43,385 nt of DNA, from NCBI GenBank assembly GCA_014879465.1, contig JACSSA010000106.1:1-43385 (forward strand), in the 5' to 3' direction. Positions 25,645 to 37,808 of the stretch are shown one piece after another. Position 1 is the first letter of the stretch. Every line of letters starts with the position of its first letter. The position numbers and the translations under genes were made by a program. Source of the DNA: Rhodothermales bacterium (GTDB taxonomy: Bacteria; Bacteroidota; Rhodothermia; Rhodothermales; BA12). Under the pieces are notes generated by a model. It had not been told where the DNA came from, did no database searches, and saw only the letters and a program-made list of their open reading frames with translations.

Positions 25645-27075
25645 TTACAAGACCGGCCCCAGCGTAGCGACGACGTTGTTGAAGATCCGTCGGGGCGCGG
25701 GAACGGCCCGAACCGCGTCGAGGGAGACGGGGGTGGAGCGGGCGAGGTAGGACGCCTGCCGCTCGCGAACGGCGCGGGTAACGGCCTCGTCCTGCACCAA
25801 GAGGTTGTTCTCGTAGTTCAGGTCGAAGCTGCGCAGGTCGAGGTTGGAGGAGCCGACCAGGCACACCGTGCCGTCTACGGTGAGGGATTTGGCGTGGAGC
25901 AGGCCGCCCTGAAACTCGTGGATGGTGCAGCCGGCCTCCAGCAGCTGGCGGTAGTAGCTGTGGCTGGCCGCTGCCACAATCCAGCTGTCGTTGCGGGCAG
26001 GGAAGATCAGCGTCACCTGCACGCCGCGCCACGCGGCGGCGGTGAGCGCCCCCAACAGCAGCGCGTCGGGGACGAAGTACGGCGTGGTGATGACGACTTC
26101 GCGCCGGGCGCAGCTCAGCAGCGTGGCCACGAGCTGCGGTGTGGCTCCGCCTCGCCCGGTCGGGCCGTCGCCCATCACCTGCGCGCACACGTTGCCTTGG
26201 GGCGGTACGGTCGCAATGCGAAAATCCTCGAAGGGCTGGTTGGTGGCCTGCATCCAGTCGCTGGCAAAAAGCAGCGCGTTTTGCGTCACCACCGGGCCGG
26301 TCACACGCAGCATCACGTCCACCCACGGCGCAAACCGCGGTTTGGTGCGGAACTCCGGGTCGGCCATGTTGCGGCTTCCGCAGTAGGTGATCTGCCCATC
26401 AATCACCACGATTTTGCGGTGGTTGCGCAGGTCGATCCGGCTGAACAGGAGGGTGTTCAGGACGTTCGAGAAGGGCAAGGCAATGGCGGTTTGCACGCCC
26501 GCCTCGCGCATCCTCGTCCATAGCGGCGAGTGGACGAAAGCCCGCGACCCCATCCCATCGGCCAAGGCCCGGCATGTTACGCCCCGCTGCGCGGCGTGCA
26601 TGAGCGCCTCGGCCACCGCCGTACCGGTGCCGTCATCCAACCAGATGTAGGTGAGCACATGCACATGGTCGGTGGCCGCGTCGATATCGGCAACGAGGCG
26701 GCGGACGGTCTCGTCGGCGTCGGCCATCAACTCGACGGTGTTGCCGTCGGTCGGCTGGAAGCCGTTGATCGACGTGGCATAGCGGAACGCGGGCGCGAAG
26801 TCGGGGTGAATCAACGCCTCGACGGTATCGCGCGGGGTCTTGTACCGAGCGGCCTTGGCCCGGATGGTGGCCACAATCTGCGCATGGCGCATGGTGGCGC
26901 GGCGATTCAGTTTGTTGCGGCCCAGAAAATAGTAGAGCACGGCCCCGACATACGGAACCAGCACCACCACCACGAACCACGCCATGCGGGCTTGCGGGGA
27001 GTACGTGTCGCGCAAGAAGATGTGCACCGACATCGCGGCGACCACAGCGACGTACAGCAGCAGGAACAGGTTCAC
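25645..27075 (-). CDS. cls: Cardiolipin synthase (PLD superfamily)
   Basis: Two N-terminal TM segments; two HKD motifs ([29 protein letters not shown]). Confidence 0.9.
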
Positions 27076-27141: not shown

Positions 27142-28170
27142 TCAGTCCACCTCGCACGCACCCTGGGCTTGCCAGTACTCAGGCGGGAATTGCCGAGTCG
27201 TTTGGTGGGTGTTTGTGACGGCGAGGATGAATGGATGTCCCTCGGAAAAAAGATCGCGGTCGAACGCGATGTCGGGCAGGCGCTGCATCGTGGCCGCGCC
27301 GAGGCGCTGCGGGTACGTCTCGATGCGGTCGCCGAGCGTGGTGTCGGTGTAGGCTTCGTAATCGTTGAGCCATAGGAGCGCGTGCGTATCGCCGTTTTTG
27401 ACTTCGTGGATGCGAGACACGCGGCGGAAACGCGTTCCGCCGTCGCCGGTGTGGAAGCGGTAGGCGAGGGCGCGGAGCCGTCCGGAGTTGGCCTCGAACC
27501 AGTAGACGAACCGGTCGTCGTGGTCGCGGCCGCCGCCGTCTTGGTCGAACGTCACCTCGACGGTGTGGTGCATGCGGCCGTCGAATCCCGCATCGTCCAG
27601 TCGTTTGAGCCGCACCGCCGGATCGTTCAGGTTGTACGGCAGCAGGGCGAAGTAAACGACGGAGTTGAGCTGTGTCTCGGCGGCCCGCACGATGGCGGCG
27701 GCGTTGGCGCGGACGCTGTCGCGCAGCGGGGCGATTTCGGCGTCGAAGTCGTGGAAGGTGATGTAGCTGAGGGACGGAGGCGCGTTTAGCGGGTCGCCAC
27801 GCAGGATCCGTCGGTAGGCCTCAAAGGCGAACGTGTCTACCACAAGCCCGTCGTTTGTCAGGCGGGCCAGTTCGCGGAAGGGGGCGTCGCCTATGGTGTC
27901 CAGCGGAACCGGCCCGCCTTGATCGGTCGAGAAGCCGAGGTCTACGGCGGGATACATGCGATAGGCGAAGCGTCTACCCTGTCGGGCGGCAACGTAGGCC
28001 GTTCCGCGAAAGCTAAACGCTACGCATGCCTCGTCCAGTTCGGCTACGCCGTGGACGCGGCGGGCGCGGTTGACGATCTCACGGGCCGACGGCTCCGGGG
28101 AGACGAGTGCGGCGGCGGTCACGACGGCCACGAGCGCGGCGGCGGCAAACGCGGGGCGGGCAAGGGACAT
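27142..28170 (-). CDS. DUF6503-like secreted/lipoprotein-like protein of unknown function
   Basis: N-terminal signal-like segment; REIVNRARRVHGVAELDEACVAFSFRG... Confidence 0.55.
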   Translation of the reverse strand: MSLARPAFAAAALVAVVTAAALVSPEPSAREIVNRARRVHGVAELDEACVAFSFRGTAYVAARQGRRFAYRMYPAVDLGFSTDQGGPVPLDTIGDAPFRELARLTNDGLVVDTFAFEAYRRILRGDPLNAPPSLSYITFHDFDAEIAPLRDSVRANAAAIVRAAETQLNSVVYFALLPYNLNDPAVRLKRLDDAGFDGRMHHTVEVTFDQDGGGRDHDDRFVYWFEANSGRLRALAYRFHTGDGGTRFRRVSRIHEVKNGDTHALLWLNDYEAYTDTTLGDRIETYPQRLGAATMQRLPDIAFDRDLFSEGHPFILAVTNTHQTTRQFPPEYWQAQGACEVD

Positions 28171-28197: not shown

Positions 28198-28665
28198 CTA
28201 CGCCCTCGCACCGCGCCCGTCCGCATCACCCGAGGCGGGGCGATCCGTCGACGTCTCTAAAAGTAGCAGGCGCGCAGCGCTCCATCGAAACCGGCCCGTT
28301 TCGAGGCAGCAGCGTTTGAACCGCCGCCCGGAGCCGCAAGGGCATGGGTCGTTGCGGCCCAGTTTTTCGGCCAGTTCTTTGGTGCCGCGCACGACGCGGT
28401 CTCCGCGCTGGACGTGCGTTTCGGACGGGTAGCCGCGTCGTCGCTTACTCGTCGTCTCGAAAGGAGGGGGCGTCGGCGAACGGTTCGTCGGCGGGCGCGC
28501 TAAAAGCGGCGCAGGGTGGTGCGTGGCATGGCGACCTCCACGGTTGGATGAAGCGCCCAACCTACCGCAGCGCAAGACGTCGTGCGGTGAAGACACCGTC
28601 GATTGCAGGTTCGTTCGCTCGTGGGTGCCGGGCGGCGTGCGTTTCAGACGGGTAGCCGCCTCCAC
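28198..28665 (-). CDS. SEC-C zinc-binding motif protein (start uncertain, true ORF may be shorter)
   Basis: [23 protein letters not shown]. Confidence 0.6.
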
Positions 28666-28810: not shown

Positions 28811-30169
28811 TTACGAAACGGACCGGCCTTCAAGCTCGAAGCGTTCCATGTAGCGGTAGAGGGTGGAGCGGGTGATGCCGAGCGCCTGTGCAGCCCGCTG
28901 GATGTTGCCGTTGAACACCCGCAAGGCCTCGGCGACCGCGTCGCGCTTGACGTCTTCGAGGGGGCGGACGCCCCGGTGGGTGCGCCCGTGCGCGTCGGCG
29001 TCGTCGGGGGTGATCAGGTCGGTGACTTCGATAGCGGGACCGTCGGCAAGCAGGAGTGCCCGTTCCACCGCGTTTTTGAGCGCTTTGACGTTGCCGGGCC
29101 ACGCATGGTCGAGCACCACGCGCTTGGCAGGCGTGGAGAAGGGGCGGGGCGCGAGGTCGGGATGGCGTTCGAGGTAGCCTCGGCGGAACTGTTCGGCCAG
29201 CAGCACCGCGTCGTTGGCGCGCTCGCGCAGCGGCGGCAGCGGGATGCTCAGGTCAAACACGCGATCAACCAGCTCTTCGCGGACGAGGCCTTCGCGCACC
29301 AGCGTCTCCGCGTCGCGGGTGCTGGTGGCAATCAGCCGGGCGGTCAGCGTTTGGCGCGTGCGTCCGCCGATGCGTACAAACGACCCCTCCCGCAGAGCCG
29401 CGAGCAAGCGGTTTTGCGTTGGGCGGCCCAGTTCTGCGATCTCGTCGAGTACCAGCGTGCCTTCGGCGGCTTGTTCGAGCAGGCCGGGTTGGGGCTGATC
29501 GTCCGGCCCGCGCTCAAGGCCAAAGAGGGCGACTTCGAGGCCTTCGTCGGGGGCAACGGCGCAGGCGAGGGTCAGGAAGGGGTGGGCACGACGCGGGCCA
29601 GCGTAGTGAATCGTGCGGGCGGTCAGCTCTTTGCCCGTTCCGGGTTCGCCCGACAAGCCCACATACACCGAATCGTTCTGGATGGCTTTGTCCACGAGCA
29701 CATACACCTTTTGCATCGCGGGACTTTCGCCCAGCAGCGCGGCGTTCGTGCCGTCGTCGAAGCGTGCCCGGAGGCAGGCCAATTCTGAGCGCAGGCGGTA
29801 GCGCTCGGCCACATGTTCGGCCACGCGCTGCACCTTGTGCAGGTCGTCTTGGCCCTTGGTGATGTAGTCGTACGCGCCAAGGCGCACGGCCTCGACGGCC
29901 ACCGAGACGTCGATCTGAGCCGAAAGCACGAGGATGGCGAGGTCGGGGCGGCGCTCCCGCAGCTGACGGAGTGTTTCGAGGCCGCCTTGACCGGCCATGA
30001 TGAGGTCGAGCACGACGAGGTGGACGTCGCCATTGAGTTCGGCAAGTGCGGTCTCACCCCGGCTGAACACGTCCACGCGAAGGCTGGGGATGCGTTCAAG
30101 CTGGTAGCGAAGCACCGACGCGTAGGCGCGGTCGTCTTCCACGACGAAGCAGCGGATGGGGGCGCTCAT
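28811..30169 (-). CDS. NtrC-family-like response regulator: receiver, AAA+ and Fis HTH domains, GAFTGA absent
   Basis: Receiver LVVLDLIMAGQGG; AAA+ GEPGTGKE and GTLVLDEIAELG; C-terminal GNIQRAAQALGITRSTLYRYMERF. Confidence 0.9.
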   Translation of the reverse strand: MSAPIRCFVVEDDRAYASVLRYQLERIPSLRVDVFSRGETALAELNGDVHLVVLDLIMAGQGGLETLRQLRERRPDLAILVLSAQIDVSVAVEAVRLGAYDYITKGQDDLHKVQRVAEHVAERYRLRSELACLRARFDDGTNAALLGESPAMQKVYVLVDKAIQNDSVYVGLSGEPGTGKELTARTIHYAGPRRAHPFLTLACAVAPDEGLEVALFGLERGPDDQPQPGLLEQAAEGTLVLDEIAELGRPTQNRLLAALREGSFVRIGGRTRQTLTARLIATSTRDAETLVREGLVREELVDRVFDLSIPLPPLRERANDAVLLAEQFRRGYLERHPDLAPRPFSTPAKRVVLDHAWPGNVKALKNAVERALLLADGPAIEVTDLITPDDADAHGRTHRGVRPLEDVKRDAVAEALRVFNGNIQRAAQALGITRSTLYRYMERFELEGRSVS

Positions 30170-31338
30170 ACGGGTTCGGAGGGAAGGGAGGCGACGGCAA
30201 GCGTGGGGCGGGCCCAGCAGCAGCGAAAGGCCGCGCCGCCTTCGGGGGAGGGAAGGTGCACGATGCTTCCGCCCCAACTTTCGATGGTGGTGCGGCAGAA
30301 ATAGAGGCCGAGGCCCGCTGCGCCGCTCGCGCCAGGGCCGCGGCTGAAGCGGCGAAACAGCATCGGGCGAAAGGCTTCGGGTACGCCCATGCCTTCGTCC
30401 GTCACCGTGAGACAGATGCGGTGGGGCAGGGTGTTGAGGGCCATGCGGACGGTGGAGCCGGGCGGGGTGTGGCGCAGGGCATTATCGAGCAGGTTGGCAA
30501 CGACGCGTTCGAGGCGCACCCGTTCGCCTACCACCAGCGGTGCCGTAGTGGCATCGGTGTGGTCTTCGAAAAGCAGATGGACATTCTTCTGCCGGGCCGT
30601 AGCGCCAAACGAGGCCAGCATGGCTTTGACCGCCTCGCGCACATCGGGAAACGGCCCGTCGAGAGGCGCAGGCGGGCGCTGTTGCGCCAGTACCGCGTCG
30701 AGGAAGCCGCGCACATACGCTTGCATCCGGTCGACTTGGGATTGGGCGATGCTGTGCAGTTCGAGGCCGGGTTCGGCCACAAACCCGTCTTGCCGCAAGA
30801 ATTCAAGGCTGGCCCGAAGCGAGGCGAGCGGCGTACCAAGGTCGTGAAGGAGGCAGGAGATCGCGTCCTCGTGCTGCTGAAAGTCGCGGCGGAGGGCTTC
30901 GAAGGCCAAGGCTTGTTCGCGGCTCTGCTGAAGCGCGTGGCGGTAAGCGTCGAAGGGAATGGCGGGCGGGCGCAGCAGCAGCAGCGGGCCGGAATCGAGG
31001 CGGAGGGCAAGGGCTTCCAGGATCACCTCCGAGCCGTCGGGGGCGGTTTCGGTCCATACGCCCGAGGCGAGCGGTCCAGGGGCATGCCCAAGCCAGAAGT
31101 CGTCGGCGTCGGCGAGGAAGGCGTCGAGAAAAAGCGAGACGGCCCGCAAGTCGGCGCGCGTGTCGTCAAGGCCGGGCCAGAGCGTCGTAAACCACGCAGG
31201 AGTGTCTCCGGTAACGGCGAAGCGTCCCGAAGGCAACGGGCGCAGCAACGCACCGCCCAGCAGCGTGGCGATCTGGCTGGCAGAGTCCGGAAGCGGAGAT
31301 AGCGGCACGGGGAAGCGGCGGATAGCGGTGCGACCCAT
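30166..31338 (-). CDS. Histidine kinase without obvious TM segments
   Basis: H-box CLLHDLGTPLASLRASLEFL; N-box VVANLLDNALRHTP; DEGMGVP; GLGLYFCRTTIESWGG; stop overlaps RR start. Confidence 0.9.
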   Translation of the reverse strand: MGRTAIRRFPVPLSPLPDSASQIATLLGGALLRPLPSGRFAVTGDTPAWFTTLWPGLDDTRADLRAVSLFLDAFLADADDFWLGHAPGPLASGVWTETAPDGSEVILEALALRLDSGPLLLLRPPAIPFDAYRHALQQSREQALAFEALRRDFQQHEDAISCLLHDLGTPLASLRASLEFLRQDGFVAEPGLELHSIAQSQVDRMQAYVRGFLDAVLAQQRPPAPLDGPFPDVREAVKAMLASFGATARQKNVHLLFEDHTDATTAPLVVGERVRLERVVANLLDNALRHTPPGSTVRMALNTLPHRICLTVTDEGMGVPEAFRPMLFRRFSRGPGASGAAGLGLYFCRTTIESWGGSIVHLPSPEGGAAFRCCWARPTLAVASLPSEPV

Positions 31339-31359
31339 AGGAGAGCGGAAAGGCGCGTT

Positions 31360-31860
31360 TCAGACGAGATGCTGGGCGAGCCGGGTGAAAGCGTCGTCAA
31401 CACCTTCGCCGGTTCGGGCACTCGTAAGCACAAGCGCAATGTGGCCCGGGAAGGTGTCGGCGGCGTCGGGCGGTACGTCCCACTCCGTGGAGAGGTCGGC
31501 CTTGTTGAGCACTACCACATAGGGAAGTGGACCGTACGCCTCTTCGATGCGGCGGCGCAGGCCTGCGGCTTCGGTCAGCGTGGCACGGCGCGTTCCGTCG
31601 GCCACGAGCAGATAGCCAGCAGCCCCGCGAAGCCGCTCGGTTTGAAAGGTTTGGAAACGATCCTCGCCGTTGAGATCCCACACGACAAGGTCGATAGGCG
31701 CTGCGCCCACCTCCACCGTTTTGCGATCCACCTTCACGCCAATCGTCGTCAGGTAGCGCTCCGAGAACACCCCGTGGACAAACCGGCTCACCAAGCTGGT
31801 CTTGCCGACGGCCGACGCGCCGACAAGGCAGATCTTGCGAGGAAGGTGCGAAGGCAGCAT
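31360..31860 (-). CDS. Ras/Rab-like small GTPase (alternative start at 31893)
   Basis: G1 GASAVGKTS; TTIG switch I; G3 WDLNGED; G4 NKAD; G5 TSARTGEGV. Confidence 0.85.
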   Translation of the reverse strand: MLPSHLPRKICLVGASAVGKTSLVSRFVHGVFSERYLTTIGVKVDRKTVEVGAAPIDLVVWDLNGEDRFQTFQTERLRGAAGYLLVADGTRRATLTEAAGLRRRIEEAYGPLPYVVVLNKADLSTEWDVPPDAADTFPGHIALVLTSARTGEGVDDAFTRLAQHLV

Positions 31861-32071
31861 CGGGACGGGAGGCCGTGTTGTTTTTTGATACATTCGAAAA
31901 CGAATCGCGGGCAATATACGACGTTGGATTCGTGAATGTACCACCCTGAGACATCTTGGTGCGAGAAAATCCTGTTTGCCTTCGCGCTGCACGGCCCGAC
32001 TTTTGCCGGGTGTACCGATGCCGGGCACTGTGCCCGATCTTTCCAGCTTTGGGCTTCTTCGAGCTGAGCTT

Positions 32072-32626
32072 ATGGACATGGACGCGCTTCTCTCCGATTC
32101 CAACGCCCCGGGGCTGCCACCGCCCCCTGTCTCCCCGACGGCCGCGCCGTCGCCCGATGCCGAGAACCTCGCCCGCATCCGAAGCATCCTCTTTGGCCAG
32201 CAGGTGGAGACGTTTGAGCACCGCTTCGCTGCGCTCGAAACCGACCTTTCTACCCGTCTCGCTGCGCTGGAACGCACGCTTGCCGACCGCGCCGATGCCC
32301 TCGGCGGGCGCCTTGACACGCTCCGCGACGACACCACCGCCCGTTTTCACGCCCAACAGGCCACCCACGACGCCGCCACCGACGCGCTCCGATCGGCCCT
32401 TTCCGACGTTGCCACAACCAACGAAGCGGCTCGTGCGGACCTGAACGCCACCTACGCCGCCCGCGCCGATGCGCAGGACGAGACGGTGCGCACGCTCTCG
32501 GCCACCGTCGACCGCCTCACCGACGGGCTGTCTCGCGACAAGGCCGACCGGGCGCTCCTCGCCGAGTTGTTCGATCATCTTGCCCAGCGGCTGCGTGGCT
32601 CGTCCGAGGCCGCCAGCGACGTCTGA
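32072..32626 (+). CDS. Coiled-coil protein, divergent from the GTPase operon (alternative start 31976)
   Basis: ENLARIRSILFGQQVETFEHRFAALETDLSTRLAALERTLADRADALGGRLDTL; heptad-like repeat. Confidence 0.7.
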   Translation: MDMDALLSDSNAPGLPPPPVSPTAAPSPDAENLARIRSILFGQQVETFEHRFAALETDLSTRLAALERTLADRADALGGRLDTLRDDTTARFHAQQATHDAATDALRSALSDVATTNEAARADLNATYAARADAQDETVRTLSATVDRLTDGLSRDKADRALLAELFDHLAQRLRGSSEAASDV

Positions 32627-32634
32627 TCGCGCCC

Positions 32635-34533
32635 GTGGAACCGACCGCCGACGAACCCATCCGCGACGCCGCCGACGAGCGTCCCCGCGCCGATGACGAC
32701 GTAGAGACGTCCCCCGAGGACGTCTCTGCTGCCGATTCCGCTGCGCCTTTGTTGGATGCACCGGAATGGGACGTGACCGACTCGACAGGTCTGGTTGCCG
32801 AAGCCTCGGACGCGGCTGCGCCGGAGGCTTCGGATTGGCAGGTGCTGGGGTCGCTTGGGCCGCTGCCGGATGACCTCGCCCAACTGCGCGCGTTGCTTGT
32901 GGGGCCGGAGCAGGCGGAAATCGCCCGGCTGCGCCGCCGCCTTCGCCTTCTCGAACAGAAAGGGCAGGGGCTGGCCGCCGATGCCGTGGCCGAGGCGCTT
33001 CCCGACGCGGTCGTGGAGAACGACCGTCAAGGGCCTCGTTTGGCTACGGCCCTTGCACCTACCGTGCGGCAGTCGCTGCAGGTGGCCGTGCGCGAGGATC
33101 CGGAGCCGGTGGCCGAAGCCATCTTTCCGATCATCGGCCCGGCCATACGACGGGCGGTGACGGACGCCATGCGCTCGATGACGTCATCGATCAACCAGAC
33201 GATGGAGCGGTCGCTGTCGCTGCAATCGGTCGGGTGGCGCGTGGAGGCGGCCCGCACGGGGCGTCCGTTTTCGGAGATCGCGCTCTCTCACATGCTCCAA
33301 TACCGGGTGGAGCAGGTCTTCTTGATCGACCGAGAGACGGGGCTTCCGCACCTGCATGTGGTGGCCGACGACGTGCCGGAGCCGGACGCACAGCTTTTTG
33401 CCGGGATGCTCACGGCCATCCGCGACTTTGCCCACGACACCCTCGGCGCGTCGTCGGACACGTTGGGGCGTTTGCAGATGGGCGAGATGGAGGTTTGGAT
33501 TGAGGCCGGGCCGTCGGCCTATGTGGCGGCGGTGGTGCGGGGCGTGCCGCCGCCGGAACTGCGCGGCACGCTTGCCGAGGTGGTGGAGGGCGTGCACCTG
33601 AAATACGGGCGCGAACTGGCCCAACCGCCCGGCGCGGTGCCGCTCGACCCGGCGCGCCCGGCGCTGGCGATGGCGCTTACCCGGCAACTGCGCGAGACGC
33701 GCAAGGGGCTGAATCCGTTCGCCAAAACGGTGCTGGTGCTGGCCGCGCTGGCGCTCGTCGGCTGGATCGGCCTGTCGGCGTGGCGGGCTTGGGCTTGGCG
33801 CGACGCGGTGGCGCGGCTGCGGGCGACGCCCGGCGTGGTCGTGACCGAGGCGCGCCGCACCGGCGGCACAGGCCACGTCGAGGGCCTGCGCGATCCTCTG
33901 GCCCTCAACGCGCAAGCGGTTGTGTCCGCTTCGCGGTGGAAGAACAGGCCGGTCGAGTGGGCGCTGCGGCCGTTCGTCTCTCTTGAGCCGACGTTTGTGG
34001 CGGCCCGCGCCTCCCGGCTGCTCAATGCACCGTCGACGGTGACGCTCGCCGTGCGCGGCGACACGCTCGTCGTGGGCGGCCGCCCCGACGCCTCGTTTGT
34101 GGAGAAGGCCAGGCGCGAAGGGCCGTATGTAGACGGCGTGCGCGAGGTAGCGATTGTGCGAGACTTCGCGGCCGAACGGGCGCAGATGCGGCAGATCGCC
34201 GCACGGCTCAACGCCACCCAACTCGTTTTTGCCAGCAACTCCTCCGAGCCGACGGGCTTTGCGGCGGCGGCGGCGGACTTCGCCGAGCTCGAACGCTTGG
34301 CCGCCGCGACCGGCACAGCCTACCGCGCCGAGGTGACAGGCTACGCCAGTCCCGAAGGCACCGATGCCGAGAACCAAGCGCTCAGTCAAATCCGCGCCGA
34401 ACGTACGGTTGAACGGCTGGTCGCCGCCGGTGCCAAAGCCGAGCGGTTTGCTACGCGCGGAGCGGGCGTGGACGCCAGTTCCGAGCCGTCGCGCCAGCGC
34501 CGAGTCGTGTTTCGGGTGAACGTGGGGTCGTAA
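32635..34533 (+). CDS. OmpA-domain protein with large predicted cytoplasmic N-terminus and single TM
   Basis: GTG start; LVGPEQAEIARLRRRLRLLEQKG; APTVRQSLQVAVREDPEPVAEAIFPIIGPAIRRAV; TM FAKTVLVLAALALVGWIGLSAW; OmpA-like VTGYASPEGTDAENQALSQIRAERTVERLV. Confidence 0.85.
   Translation: MEPTADEPIRDAADERPRADDDVETSPEDVSAADSAAPLLDAPEWDVTDSTGLVAEASDAAAPEASDWQVLGSLGPLPDDLAQLRALLVGPEQAEIARLRRRLRLLEQKGQGLAADAVAEALPDAVVENDRQGPRLATALAPTVRQSLQVAVREDPEPVAEAIFPIIGPAIRRAVTDAMRSMTSSINQTMERSLSLQSVGWRVEAARTGRPFSEIALSHMLQYRVEQVFLIDRETGLPHLHVVADDVPEPDAQLFAGMLTAIRDFAHDTLGASSDTLGRLQMGEMEVWIEAGPSAYVAAVVRGVPPPELRGTLAEVVEGVHLKYGRELAQPPGAVPLDPARPALAMALTRQLRETRKGLNPFAKTVLVLAALALVGWIGLSAWRAWAWRDAVARLRATPGVVVTEARRTGGTGHVEGLRDPLALNAQAVVSASRWKNRPVEWALRPFVSLEPTFVAARASRLLNAPSTVTLAVRGDTLVVGGRPDASFVEKARREGPYVDGVREVAIVRDFAAERAQMRQIAARLNATQLVFASNSSEPTGFAAAAADFAELERLAAATGTAYRAEVTGYASPEGTDAENQALSQIRAERTVERLVAAGAKAERFATRGAGVDASSEPSRQRRVVFRVNVGS
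32701..32729. repeat. Palindrome inside the OmpA-protein ORF
   Basis: gtAGAGACGTCCcccgaGGACGTCTCTgc, 10-bp perfect arms plus one wobble and one more pair. Confidence 0.65.
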
Positions 34534-35390: not shown

Positions 35391-36524
35391 TTAGCCGAAC
35401 CGCTGCACGGCATCGAGCATCCGCGCAAGGTCGTCGTCGGTGTTGGTCCATGTCGGCGAGACGCGCACGAGCCGGTTTCGGGCCGAGACCGTGATCCGCT
35501 CGCTCGCCAGCGCCTCAACGAGCGCGTCGGGGCGCGGGTGGCGGAAGGTGACGATCCCGGAGGCGTGCGCCTCGTCGTCGGAGCCGTAGCACGCGAGGCC
35601 GAGTCGGTCGAGGTTCTCGCGGAGTCGCCGCGACAGGCCGAGTACATGCGCCTCGATGGCGTAGGGGCCGAAATCCTCCACCTGTTTGAGCGCCGCGCCG
35701 AAACCCAGCGCGCCCATGTGGTTGAGCGTGCCAAGGCGGAAGCGACGGGCGTCGGGGTGGAACCGCAGGTCGTAGGCGAAGAAATCGTCCCACTTGACCG
35801 GCACGTTGAGCCAGCCTGCGCGCGGGGTGATGCGTTCCTGCACGGCCTCGGTGAGGTAGAGGTAGCCGATGCCCTGAGGCCCCATCCACCACTTTTGCGC
35901 CCCGCCCGCGAGGAAATCCACGCCGGAACGAACGGCGTCCAACTGCAACACGCCGTGGCCTTGAACGGCATCGACGGCGAGCAGTGCCCCGTGGGCGTGG
36001 ACGAGGTCGGCGAGGGCGGCCACATCGACCCGAAAGCCGGACAGAAACTGCACCCACGAGACGGTGACGAGCCGGGTGCGGGGGGTGAGCACGGCGGCGA
36101 CGTCGTCGAGGGAGAACGTGCCGTCGCGATGGGGAATGAAGTCCACCCCGACGCCCTTGCGTTCGAGGTGGAGGAACGGGTAGACGTTGGCCGGAAACTC
36201 GCAGGCGGGCAGGGCGATGCGGTCGCCGGGCTGCCAGTCCAACCCCTCGGCGAGTACGGAGAGGGCTTCGGTGGTGTTGGCCGTGAACTCGACGCGGTCG
36301 CGGACGGTGCCGAGGCTTCGGGCGAGGCGGTCGAGAGCGGCCTCGGTTTGGGGCAAGACCTGCGCGAAGTTGTCGACGGCTCGCCCGTGCCGGTCGGCGA
36401 TATCGGCCTCCAGCGCATCGACGACGCGGGTGGAGTACACGCCGGTGGCGGCGTGGTTGAGGTAGGTCTGCGCGGCGGTGTGCGGAAAGAGCGCGCGGAC
36501 GGCGGCGTGGTCGAGCACGGGCAT
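35391..36524 (-). CDS. Class V aminotransferase (cysteine desulfurase-like fold)
   Basis: YLNHAATGVYSTRVV; LAVDAVQGHGVL; DFLAGGAQKWWMGPQGIGYLYL. Confidence 0.88.
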   Translation of the reverse strand: MPVLDHAAVRALFPHTAAQTYLNHAATGVYSTRVVDALEADIADRHGRAVDNFAQVLPQTEAALDRLARSLGTVRDRVEFTANTTEALSVLAEGLDWQPGDRIALPACEFPANVYPFLHLERKGVGVDFIPHRDGTFSLDDVAAVLTPRTRLVTVSWVQFLSGFRVDVAALADLVHAHGALLAVDAVQGHGVLQLDAVRSGVDFLAGGAQKWWMGPQGIGYLYLTEAVQERITPRAGWLNVPVKWDDFFAYDLRFHPDARRFRLGTLNHMGALGFGAALKQVEDFGPYAIEAHVLGLSRRLRENLDRLGLACYGSDDEAHASGIVTFRHPRPDALVEALASERITVSARNRLVRVSPTWTNTDDDLARMLDAVQRFG

Positions 36525-36610
36525 CGGGGGAAGGGCCGAGAGGCGAAGTGGGAGCGCGGAAGTCCAAACGCCTTGGAACTTGGCCTTTGATGTTGGTTCC
36601 TCCCGCCGCC

Positions 36611-37654
36611 TCACCCCGTGCTGTCGGCGCGTTGGGCGGCGCGGCGCTCGCGCATCAGCCGATAGAAGTCCTCGGCGGCGCGCTGGTGCTCGGCAAGGGT
36701 GCGAGAGAACGTATGGCAACCGTCGCCCTTGGCGACGAAATACAGGTAGTCGTTCGTGTCGGGTTTGAGCACGGCCTTGACGGCGCTGGCGGCGGGGTTG
36801 GTCACCGGCCCCGGTGGCAGGCCTTTAAACAGGTAGGTGTTGTACGGATGTTGGATGCGGTAGTCCACGAACAGCAGCCGACGTTTCGCCCCTTCGCGCT
36901 CCAGAATAGCATATTGGACGGTCGGGTCGGCCTGCAGCGGCATCCCAATCCGGTAGCGATTGAGGTAGGTTTCAGCCACAATCGGACGTTCGCCGGGGCA
37001 ACTCGTCTCCCATTCCACGATGCTCGCCATCGTGGCGACCTGCGCGTTGGTGAGGCCGTCGGGTTGCGGGCCGTTTTCGCGCACGAGATCGTCGAACTTC
37101 TCCTTGATCGTCTTCACCACCCTGTTCGGGCTGTCGAGCCAGAAGAAGTAGTAGGTGTCGGGCAGCATAAAGCCGAGCAGGTCGCGCTGCTCCGTGTCGA
37201 GGGCGCGGGCAAGGCTGTCGGACGTGAGCGCCCGCTTCATCCCGTCCGGCCCGGCGTAGAGGTTGCGCCCCGCCACGGCCGCAAGACGGTCGAGCGTGAC
37301 GCCCGGCGGTACGGTCACCTTGACGTACGACTGCTCGCCGCGCCGCAGCTTGCCCAGCAGGTCGTAGGCCGACATGCCCTCCGGCACTTCGTAGTAGCCG
37401 GCATCGAGTTGGCGCGCCCAGCCCGTCCACTGGGCAAGGTTCTCGAACCGGCTGCGGCTCTTGATAATGCCCGCCGCATCGAGGCTGTCCACAATCTGCG
37501 AGAACGCCGCGCCGGGCGGAATTTTGACGCCACGCTTGGCATCGTCGCTGTAGTTCGGGGTGATGGAGCCGAAGACGTACCACGCGCCCGCCGCACCGAC
37601 GGCGAGAACGAGGGCCACGAGCGCCAGCAGGGCGTTGCGGGTGGAGGCGGTCAT
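36611..37654 (-). CDS. mltG: Endolytic transglycosylase MltG
   Basis: N-terminal TM; ATMASIVEWETSCPGERPIVAETYLNRYRIGMPLQADPTVQYA; YNTYLFKGLPPGPVTNP. Confidence 0.93.
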   Translation of the reverse strand: MTASTRNALLALVALVLAVGAAGAWYVFGSITPNYSDDAKRGVKIPPGAAFSQIVDSLDAAGIIKSRSRFENLAQWTGWARQLDAGYYEVPEGMSAYDLLGKLRRGEQSYVKVTVPPGVTLDRLAAVAGRNLYAGPDGMKRALTSDSLARALDTEQRDLLGFMLPDTYYFFWLDSPNRVVKTIKEKFDDLVRENGPQPDGLTNAQVATMASIVEWETSCPGERPIVAETYLNRYRIGMPLQADPTVQYAILEREGAKRRLLFVDYRIQHPYNTYLFKGLPPGPVTNPAASAVKAVLKPDTNDYLYFVAKGDGCHTFSRTLAEHQRAAEDFYRLMRERRAAQRADSTG

Positions 37655-37808
37655 AAACGAAAAAACAAGGGCATTCGCAGCGCCAAAGGTCGGGTGCTGC
37701 CGGTTCGTTCCGGAAAGCCCTTTCATCGTCTTCATCCGATCTGCGTTTGCCGCGAAGAAGGAACAGCGGAGGCGGGAGGGTTCTATCTGCCCCATACCCC
37801 GCCGACCG

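What the first reader, a model, noticed from the sequence alone, without database searches (positions are those of the whole stretch)
28811..34533. Candidate envelope-signalling system: small GTPase, histidine kinase and response regulator divergent from coiled-coil and transmembrane OmpA-domain proteins
Seen: minus-strand genes GTPase (31860-31360), HK (31338-30166) and RR (30169-28811) are spaced 21 nt apart or overlap by 4 nt, so they look co-transcribed. A roughly 200-bp divergent spacer separates them from a coiled-coil gene and an OmpA-domain gene 8 nt apart. The HK has no obvious TM segment. The OmpA protein has a ~360-aa N-terminus before a single TM and a C-terminal peptidoglycan-binding-type domain. 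Inference: the OmpA protein could report envelope state to the GTPase, which gates the soluble HK/RR. I recall similar OmpA/GTPase neighbourhoods in other phyla but know of no assigned function.
Basis: partly seen in the sequence, partly recalled or inferred. Interest (0 to 1): 0.85.

Follow-up and report, generated by a model that had tools for sequence, protein, structure and literature searches.

The report
Envelope-tethered Rab-like GTPase signalling module
Next to each other in this bacterium lie genes for a Rab-like molecular switch, a membrane protein that reaches toward the cell wall, and a two-part control system; the same kit recurs across many bacterial phyla and was described but not tested in 2014, and here its membrane part is predicted to carry the kind of domain that controls Rab switches in our own cells.

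Summary
The five genes are real, at the stated coordinates and spacings. The locus meets the published features of 'Rup Group 1', a predicted, untested system: Rab-like GTPase lacking the catalytic Gln, coiled-coil protein, protein of unknown domain + TM + OmpA, and an output protein with an invariant N-terminal Gln (Wuichet & Sogaard-Andersen 2014, PMC4316618). Added here: (1) among 77 good genomes of the order, GTPase, OmpA-protein N-domain and kinase N-domain occur in exactly the same 13; in one genus they co-persist although unlinked. (2) The unknown domain is predicted to have a longin/roadblock fold (closest: MglB, TRAPP Bet5, Mon1-Ccz1), so the OmpA protein is best read as a membrane-tethered regulator of the GTPase. 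(3) The kinase N-terminus is a predicted PAS domain; the Gln sits on its exit helix, and the same module precedes six output types elsewhere. (4) In this genome the response regulator has lost the sigma-54 GAFTGA loop that its orthologues keep, and the OmpA domain lacks the usual peptidoglycan-contact Asp. All function is inferred; nothing was tested biochemically.

The parts
31360..31860 (-). Rab-like small GTPase, 166 aa, Rup Group 1 type (G3 = WDLNGED, no catalytic Gln)
30166..31338 (-). soluble histidine kinase, 390 aa: N-terminal PAS domain (about 18-123), exit helix with invariant Gln137, then HisKA and HATPase_c
28811..30169 (-). NtrC-type response regulator, 452 aa: receiver, AAA+, Fis-type HTH
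29492..29515 (-). place of the lost GAFTGA (sigma-54 contact) loop in the RR; reads ERGPDDQP
31861..32071 (.). divergent spacer between the two gene groups; no sigma-70-like promoter match found
32072..32626 (+). coiled-coil protein, 184 aa, with the cross-phylum motif ILFGQQVETFEHRF
32635..34533 (+). OmpA-like membrane protein, 632 aa: cytoplasmic N-domain, one TM (about 362-382), wall-side part with a divergent OmpA domain (about 547-612)
33262..33711 (+). predicted longin-like domain inside the OmpA-like protein (150-aa stretch used as profile A8)

Best explanation
This is a Rup Group 1 signalling module. Shown by sequence: genes for a Rab-like GTPase, a single-span membrane protein with a conserved cytoplasmic N-domain and an OmpA-like C-domain, a coiled-coil protein, and a soluble HK/RR pair, conserved together. 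Predicted by structure comparison: the N-domain is a longin/roadblock-type platform for small GTPases, and the HK N-terminus is a PAS domain. Inferred: (i) the longin-bearing protein, positioned or altered by its wall-side domain and scaffolded with the coiled-coil protein, sets the GTP/GDP state of the GTPase (as GEF or GAP; which one is unknown); (ii) the GTP-bound GTPase docks on the PAS domain and exit helix of the kinase, where invariant Gln137 either completes GTP hydrolysis in trans (the Gln missing from the GTPase) or forms the docking site, and this changes kinase activity; (iii) phosphate passes to the AAA+ response regulator, which in this genome most likely acts without sigma-54 remodelling.
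For: The same 13 of 77 good genomes hold GTPase, N-domain and HK N-domain. The genes are unlinked but co-retained in one genus of three genomes. Within families the three are present or absent together. Of 101 GTPase loci, 88 have the N-domain gene within 3 kb and 66 within 200 nt. Longin-like fold: AF2, Foldseek, sub-threshold matches to Bet5 (E 0.027) and to Fuz/Mon1 longin (E 0.012). No Robl_LC7 (MglB-type) match in this genome, so another regulator is needed. Outputs are swapped behind one PAS-plus-Gln module: HK, GGDEF, HD-GYP, sigma-54 AAA+, class III cyclase, SpoIIE phosphatase, which implies flow from GTPase to output. PAS fold of the HK N-terminus. Catalytic Gln absent from the GTPase. 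Family definition: PMC4316618.
Against: No interaction, exchange or hydrolysis has been measured, here or in the papers found. The fold match is moderate (Foldseek E about 1e-4 to 1e-3; TM 0.60-0.65 by target length) and sequence matches to longins are below threshold. Some relatives lack TM and OmpA (L050, L135), so the envelope link is not universal. The OmpA domain here has Ser in place of the usual Asp. The RR has lost GAFTGA. Many rows of A7 from outside the order were picked with a pattern containing Gln; the alignment, made without it, still gives Gln in 41 of 42 homologues by my count.
Confidence: 0.6

Rival explanations
1. Reverse flow: the kinase (or other PAS protein) is the sensor, its Gln makes it the GAP of the GTPase, and the GTPase acts back on the longin/OmpA and coiled-coil proteins to organise the envelope. 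This is like the published proposal that the GTPase is the output of actinobacterial conservons.
For: Gln in trans would make the PAS protein a GAP, as Wuichet & Sogaard-Andersen suggested; several module copies have an HK with no adjacent RR (L058, L059, L065); PAS domains often sense.
Against: In other genomes the same position holds terminal effectors: GGDEF, HD-GYP, cyclase, sigma-54 AAA+, SpoIIE phosphatase, which fit better downstream of the GTPase; here an RR follows the HK.
Confidence: 0.2
2. Positioning system: as with MglA/MglB, the GTPase marks a place in the cell (for example where the OmpA protein meets the wall) and brings the output enzyme there, with no envelope sensing.
For: Longin/roadblock similarity with MglB as the first Foldseek match; coiled-coil partner; OmpA-type domain could anchor.
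Against: No localisation data; the HK/RR pair ends in a DNA-binding regulator, which does not need a place.
Confidence: 0.12
3. Decaying copy: in this genome the module is partly degenerate (RR without GAFTGA, divergent OmpA domain) and has lost its transcriptional output.
For: Loss of GAFTGA against ten orthologues; Asp to Ser in the OmpA motif.
Against: All five frames are open; GTPase G1-G5 motifs, HK catalytic motifs, RR receiver Asp and Walker motifs are intact; the change in the RR is in frame; the OmpA Asp also varies in relatives.
Confidence: 0.07
4. Chance neighbourhood of unrelated genes.
For: None beyond the lack of experiments.
Against: Identical presence in 77 genomes, co-retention when unlinked, and linkage across phyla.
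Confidence: 0.01

Closest known systems
Rup Group 1 systems (Wuichet & Sogaard-Andersen 2014, PMC4316618)
   Same: GTPase without the G3 Gln; coiled-coil gene; unknown domain + TM + OmpA gene; output gene (HK or GGDEF/EAL) with an invariant N-terminal Gln; neighbouring genes.
   Different: Here the HK is followed by its own NtrC-type RR, which lacks GAFTGA in this species. The unknown domain is now predicted to be longin-like and the Gln-bearing region PAS, and four more output types are seen elsewhere.
MglA-MglB
   Same: Ras-like GTPase with a longin/roadblock-superfamily partner; MglB is Foldseek's first match.
   Different: The GTPase is Rab-like; the partner is a membrane protein with a longin-like order of elements; no Robl_LC7 match in this genome.
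Actinobacterial conservons (Cvn, actinobacterial G protein systems; PMC13343842)
   Same: Histidine kinase, roadblock-type protein, protein of unknown function and small GTPase in one operon.
   Different: Conservons use MglA-type GTPases and MglB homologues and have no RR; here the GTPase is Rab-like, the regulator carries TM and OmpA, and an RR is present.
Eukaryotic longin GEFs of Rabs: TRAPP (Bet5/Trs23) and Mon1-Ccz1
   Same: Rab-like GTPase paired with a longin-fold protein at a membrane; structural and weak profile matches.
   Different: Sequence similarity is below significance; no evidence of GEF activity; the bacterial protein is tied to the wall side, not to vesicles.

Membership tests
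Rup Group 1 GTPase system | Ras/Rab-like small GTPase of at most 240 aa, nearer Rab than MglA | tested here: met
   166 aa; Ras PF00071; the 60 best PDB matches shown are Rab-type, none named MglA. No tree with MglA was built.
Rup Group 1 GTPase system | Catalytic Gln of the G3 motif absent | tested here: met
   WDLNGED here; Q in 5 of 102 relatives
Rup Group 1 GTPase system | Neighbouring gene for a coiled-coil cytoplasmic protein | tested here: met
   32072-32626; shared motif across phyla
Rup Group 1 GTPase system | Neighbouring protein with conserved unknown domain, often TM and OmpA | tested here: met
   32635-34533; OmpA E 6e-6 here, over cut-off in relatives; one TM
Rup Group 1 GTPase system | Output protein with an N-terminal region holding an invariant Gln | tested here: met
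   HK Q137
Longin domain | bb-a-bbb-a-a topology and structural match to longins | tested here: met
   Predicted model only: topology; Bet5, Sec22b and others TM 0.60-0.65 by target length
Longin domain | Significant sequence or profile match to a longin family | tested here: inconclusive
   Bet5 E 0.027, Fuz_longin_1 E 0.012 in three members; all below threshold
Longin/roadblock regulator of small GTPases | Binds and regulates the small GTPase | not testable with these tools
   Needs binding and exchange assays or a complex prediction
Roadblock/MglB | Robl_LC7 profile match | tested here: not met
   No match for the window domain; one relative only, E 0.07
Sigma-54 activator (NtrC family) | GAFTGA loop | tested here: not met
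   Reads ERGPDD---QPQPG against GSFTGA/GAFTGA in ten order orthologues
Peptidoglycan-binding OmpA domain | Asp and Arg of the peptidoglycan-contact site | tested here: inconclusive
   Motif comparison only: Arg kept, Asp replaced by Ser

The most novel reading that the evidence does not exclude
A widespread bacterial Rab-longin switch: a single-span membrane protein carries a true longin domain inside the cell and a wall-side domain outside, controls a Rab-like GTPase, and the GTPase controls interchangeable effectors (kinase, c-di-GMP and cyclic-nucleotide enzymes, sigma-54 activators, phosphatase) through one PAS-helix module that supplies the missing catalytic Gln in trans. This would be a bacterial counterpart, perhaps a relative, of the longin-Rab pairs that organise eukaryotic membranes.
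Probability: 0.35. Interest if true: 0.85.

Novelty: new member of a known kind. Interest (0 to 1): 0.6.

Why it matters
Rup Group 1 systems have been on paper since 2014, and I found no experiment on them in the papers searched. A predicted fold for the unknown domain, a PAS assignment for the Gln-bearing region and a list of six output types turn 'unknown function' into specific tests: who binds whom, which protein is GEF or GAP, and which way the signal runs. If the longin prediction holds, Rab-like GTPases and longin-type regulators already work as a pair in bacteria, which bears on where the switches of eukaryotic membrane traffic came from.

Tried and rejected
Pfam and NCBIfam gave no useful family for the coiled-coil protein or for the N-domain of the OmpA-like protein; Pfam on 64 N-domains gave only scattered hits. 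The PDB profile search with A8 ranks two designed chlorophyll-dimer proteins first (E 0.002); I treat these as spurious because they rest on repeated pieces with i-Evalues of about 9 or worse. A sigma-70-like promoter in the divergent spacer: none found. Membership of MglA-MglB: rejected. Sigma-54 transcription as the default output of this genome's RR: rejected because GAFTGA is gone, although the genome has sigma-54. The motif pattern gave false places in several outputs; I left most of those rows out of A7.

Full report
Observation. The window is contig C194 of a 2.97-Mb draft genome, 99.3% complete. Pfam identifies a Ras-family GTPase, a HisKA/HATPase kinase, an NtrC-type response regulator and a marginal OmpA domain; the coiled-coil protein and the N-terminal 360 residues of the OmpA-like protein have no useful family. 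Hydropathy supports a soluble HK and a single TM near residues 362-382 of the OmpA-like protein.

Prior knowledge. Wuichet & Sogaard-Andersen 2014 (PMC4316618) defined Group 1 of the Rup GTPases: they lack the G3 glutamine, and their genes lie with a coiled-coil gene, a gene for a conserved unknown domain often followed by a TM helix and OmpA, and an output gene (HK or GGDEF/EAL) whose N-terminus has an invariant Gln. They proposed a membrane-signalling system and said that no member had been characterised by experiment. Each of these features was tested here and met (membership table). Searches for later papers found no experiment on Group 1, within the limits of an open-licence library.

Linkage and co-occurrence. 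In 114 genomes of the order, the GTPase model hits 20, the OmpA-protein N-domain model 20 and the HK N-domain model 18. In the 77 good genomes the three sets are the same 13 (chance of two such sets coinciding 5e-15, not corrected for kinship). Presence varies within families f2 and f11, and the three vary together there. In genus g4 (G003, G017, G028) GTPase and HK are on one contig and the coiled-coil and OmpA-like genes on another, well away from the contig ends, yet all are kept. In f9 genomes two modules exist; the second copy has no adjacent RR. In the 80 loci kept (mostly Cyanobacteriota, also Chloroflexota, Campylobacterota, Spirochaetota, Calditrichota and Desulfobacterota by their titles) plus the loci from this order and phylum, 88 of 101 have the N-domain gene within 3 kb of the GTPase and 66 within 200 nt. 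The coiled-coil gene shows a cross-phylum motif of the form [IL][IL]FGxQxxxYExRF.

The unknown domain. AlphaFold2 on residues 71-360 of the OmpA-like protein with 64 sequences gives mean pLDDT 81: a helical part, then a domain of order bb-a-bbb-a-a, which is the longin order; the difference between longin and roadblock topology is described in PMC10933270. A short helix also precedes the first strand. Foldseek's best PDB matches are MglB in complex with MglA (6e-5), an adaptor sigma subunit (2e-4), Mon1-Ccz1 with Ypt7 (6e-4) and TRAPP Bet5 (7e-4, TM 0.65 by target length); Ragulator and Sec22b follow. Profile searches point the same way but stay below significance: Bet5 E 0.027, and a Fuz/Mon1 longin family E 0.012 in three members. 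I take longin-like as likely, not proven. Zhang et al. 2012 (PMC3521125) argued that eukaryotic longins derive from MglB-like partners of small GTPases. No Robl_LC7 protein is found in this genome, so the longin-like domain is the best candidate regulator of the GTPase.

The output module. The HK N-terminus is modelled at mean pLDDT 90 as a PAS domain with a long exit helix; the best Foldseek match is the PAS domain of Rv1364c (6.5e-4). Gln137 lies on that helix and is the only invariant column among 53 outputs; many of those rows were chosen with a pattern containing Gln, but the alignment, made without it, gives Gln in 41 of 42 homologues by my count. The same module precedes HK, GGDEF, HD-GYP, sigma-54 AAA+, class III cyclase and SpoIIE phosphatase domains. 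Because several of these are terminal effectors, the signal most likely runs from GTPase to output; this is inference.

Peculiarities of this genome. The RR keeps the receiver Asp, Walker A/B and the two arginines of the arginine-finger region, but has a three-residue gap and substitutions where ten orthologues of the order read GSFTGA or GAFTGA. GAFTGA contacts sigma-54 (general knowledge of the family), so this RR probably acts without sigma-54 remodelling, although the genome has sigma-54. The OmpA domain keeps the Arg but has Ser for the usual Asp of the peptidoglycan-contact site, a position that also varies in relatives, so wall binding is uncertain.

Verdict. A real, conserved module and a member of a known but untested kind. 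Every functional step remains inference.

Noticed in passing
L060:10317-11243 (+), L062:8767-9708 (-), L067:8755-9708 (-): In genus g4 an extra gene between GTPase and HK carries the same Gln motif (VDVT...QQLFQQANEL) and, in L060, a sub-cut-off class III cyclase match (E 0.0033): a second, different output beside one GTPase.
   Followed up: partly
L123:7482-8804 (+): Spirochaetota MAG: the output gene beside the GTPase ends in a SpoIIE phosphatase domain.
   Followed up: partly
L131:4075-5232 (+): Anaerolineae MAG: the output gene is PAS_4 plus a class III nucleotide cyclase.
   Followed up: partly
L072:6398-8191 (-), L073:6405-8165 (-), L133, L137, L139, L141, L144, L146: The output is a one-component sigma-54 AAA+ regulator with the Gln-bearing N-terminus and no receiver domain.
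   Followed up: partly
L050:8604-9936 (-): A version whose longin-bearing protein is only about 280 aa, without TM or OmpA, next to GTPase and HK.
   Followed up: no
L058, L059, L065: Second module copies in f9 genomes have no adjacent RR and, by phmmer, no coiled-coil gene.
   Followed up: partly
L098: A cyanobacterial-looking locus in a MAG labelled Candidatus Gracilibacteria; probably a mis-binned contig.
   Followed up: no
window 25645-27075 (-): PLD-family protein (cardiolipin-synthase-like) beyond the RR end of the locus; a DUF6503 protein (27142-28170) and a SEC-C protein (28198-28665) lie between.
   Followed up: no
window 36611-37795 (-): YceG/MltG-family protein about 2 kb past the OmpA-like gene, beside a class-V aminotransferase (35391-36719).
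   Followed up: no
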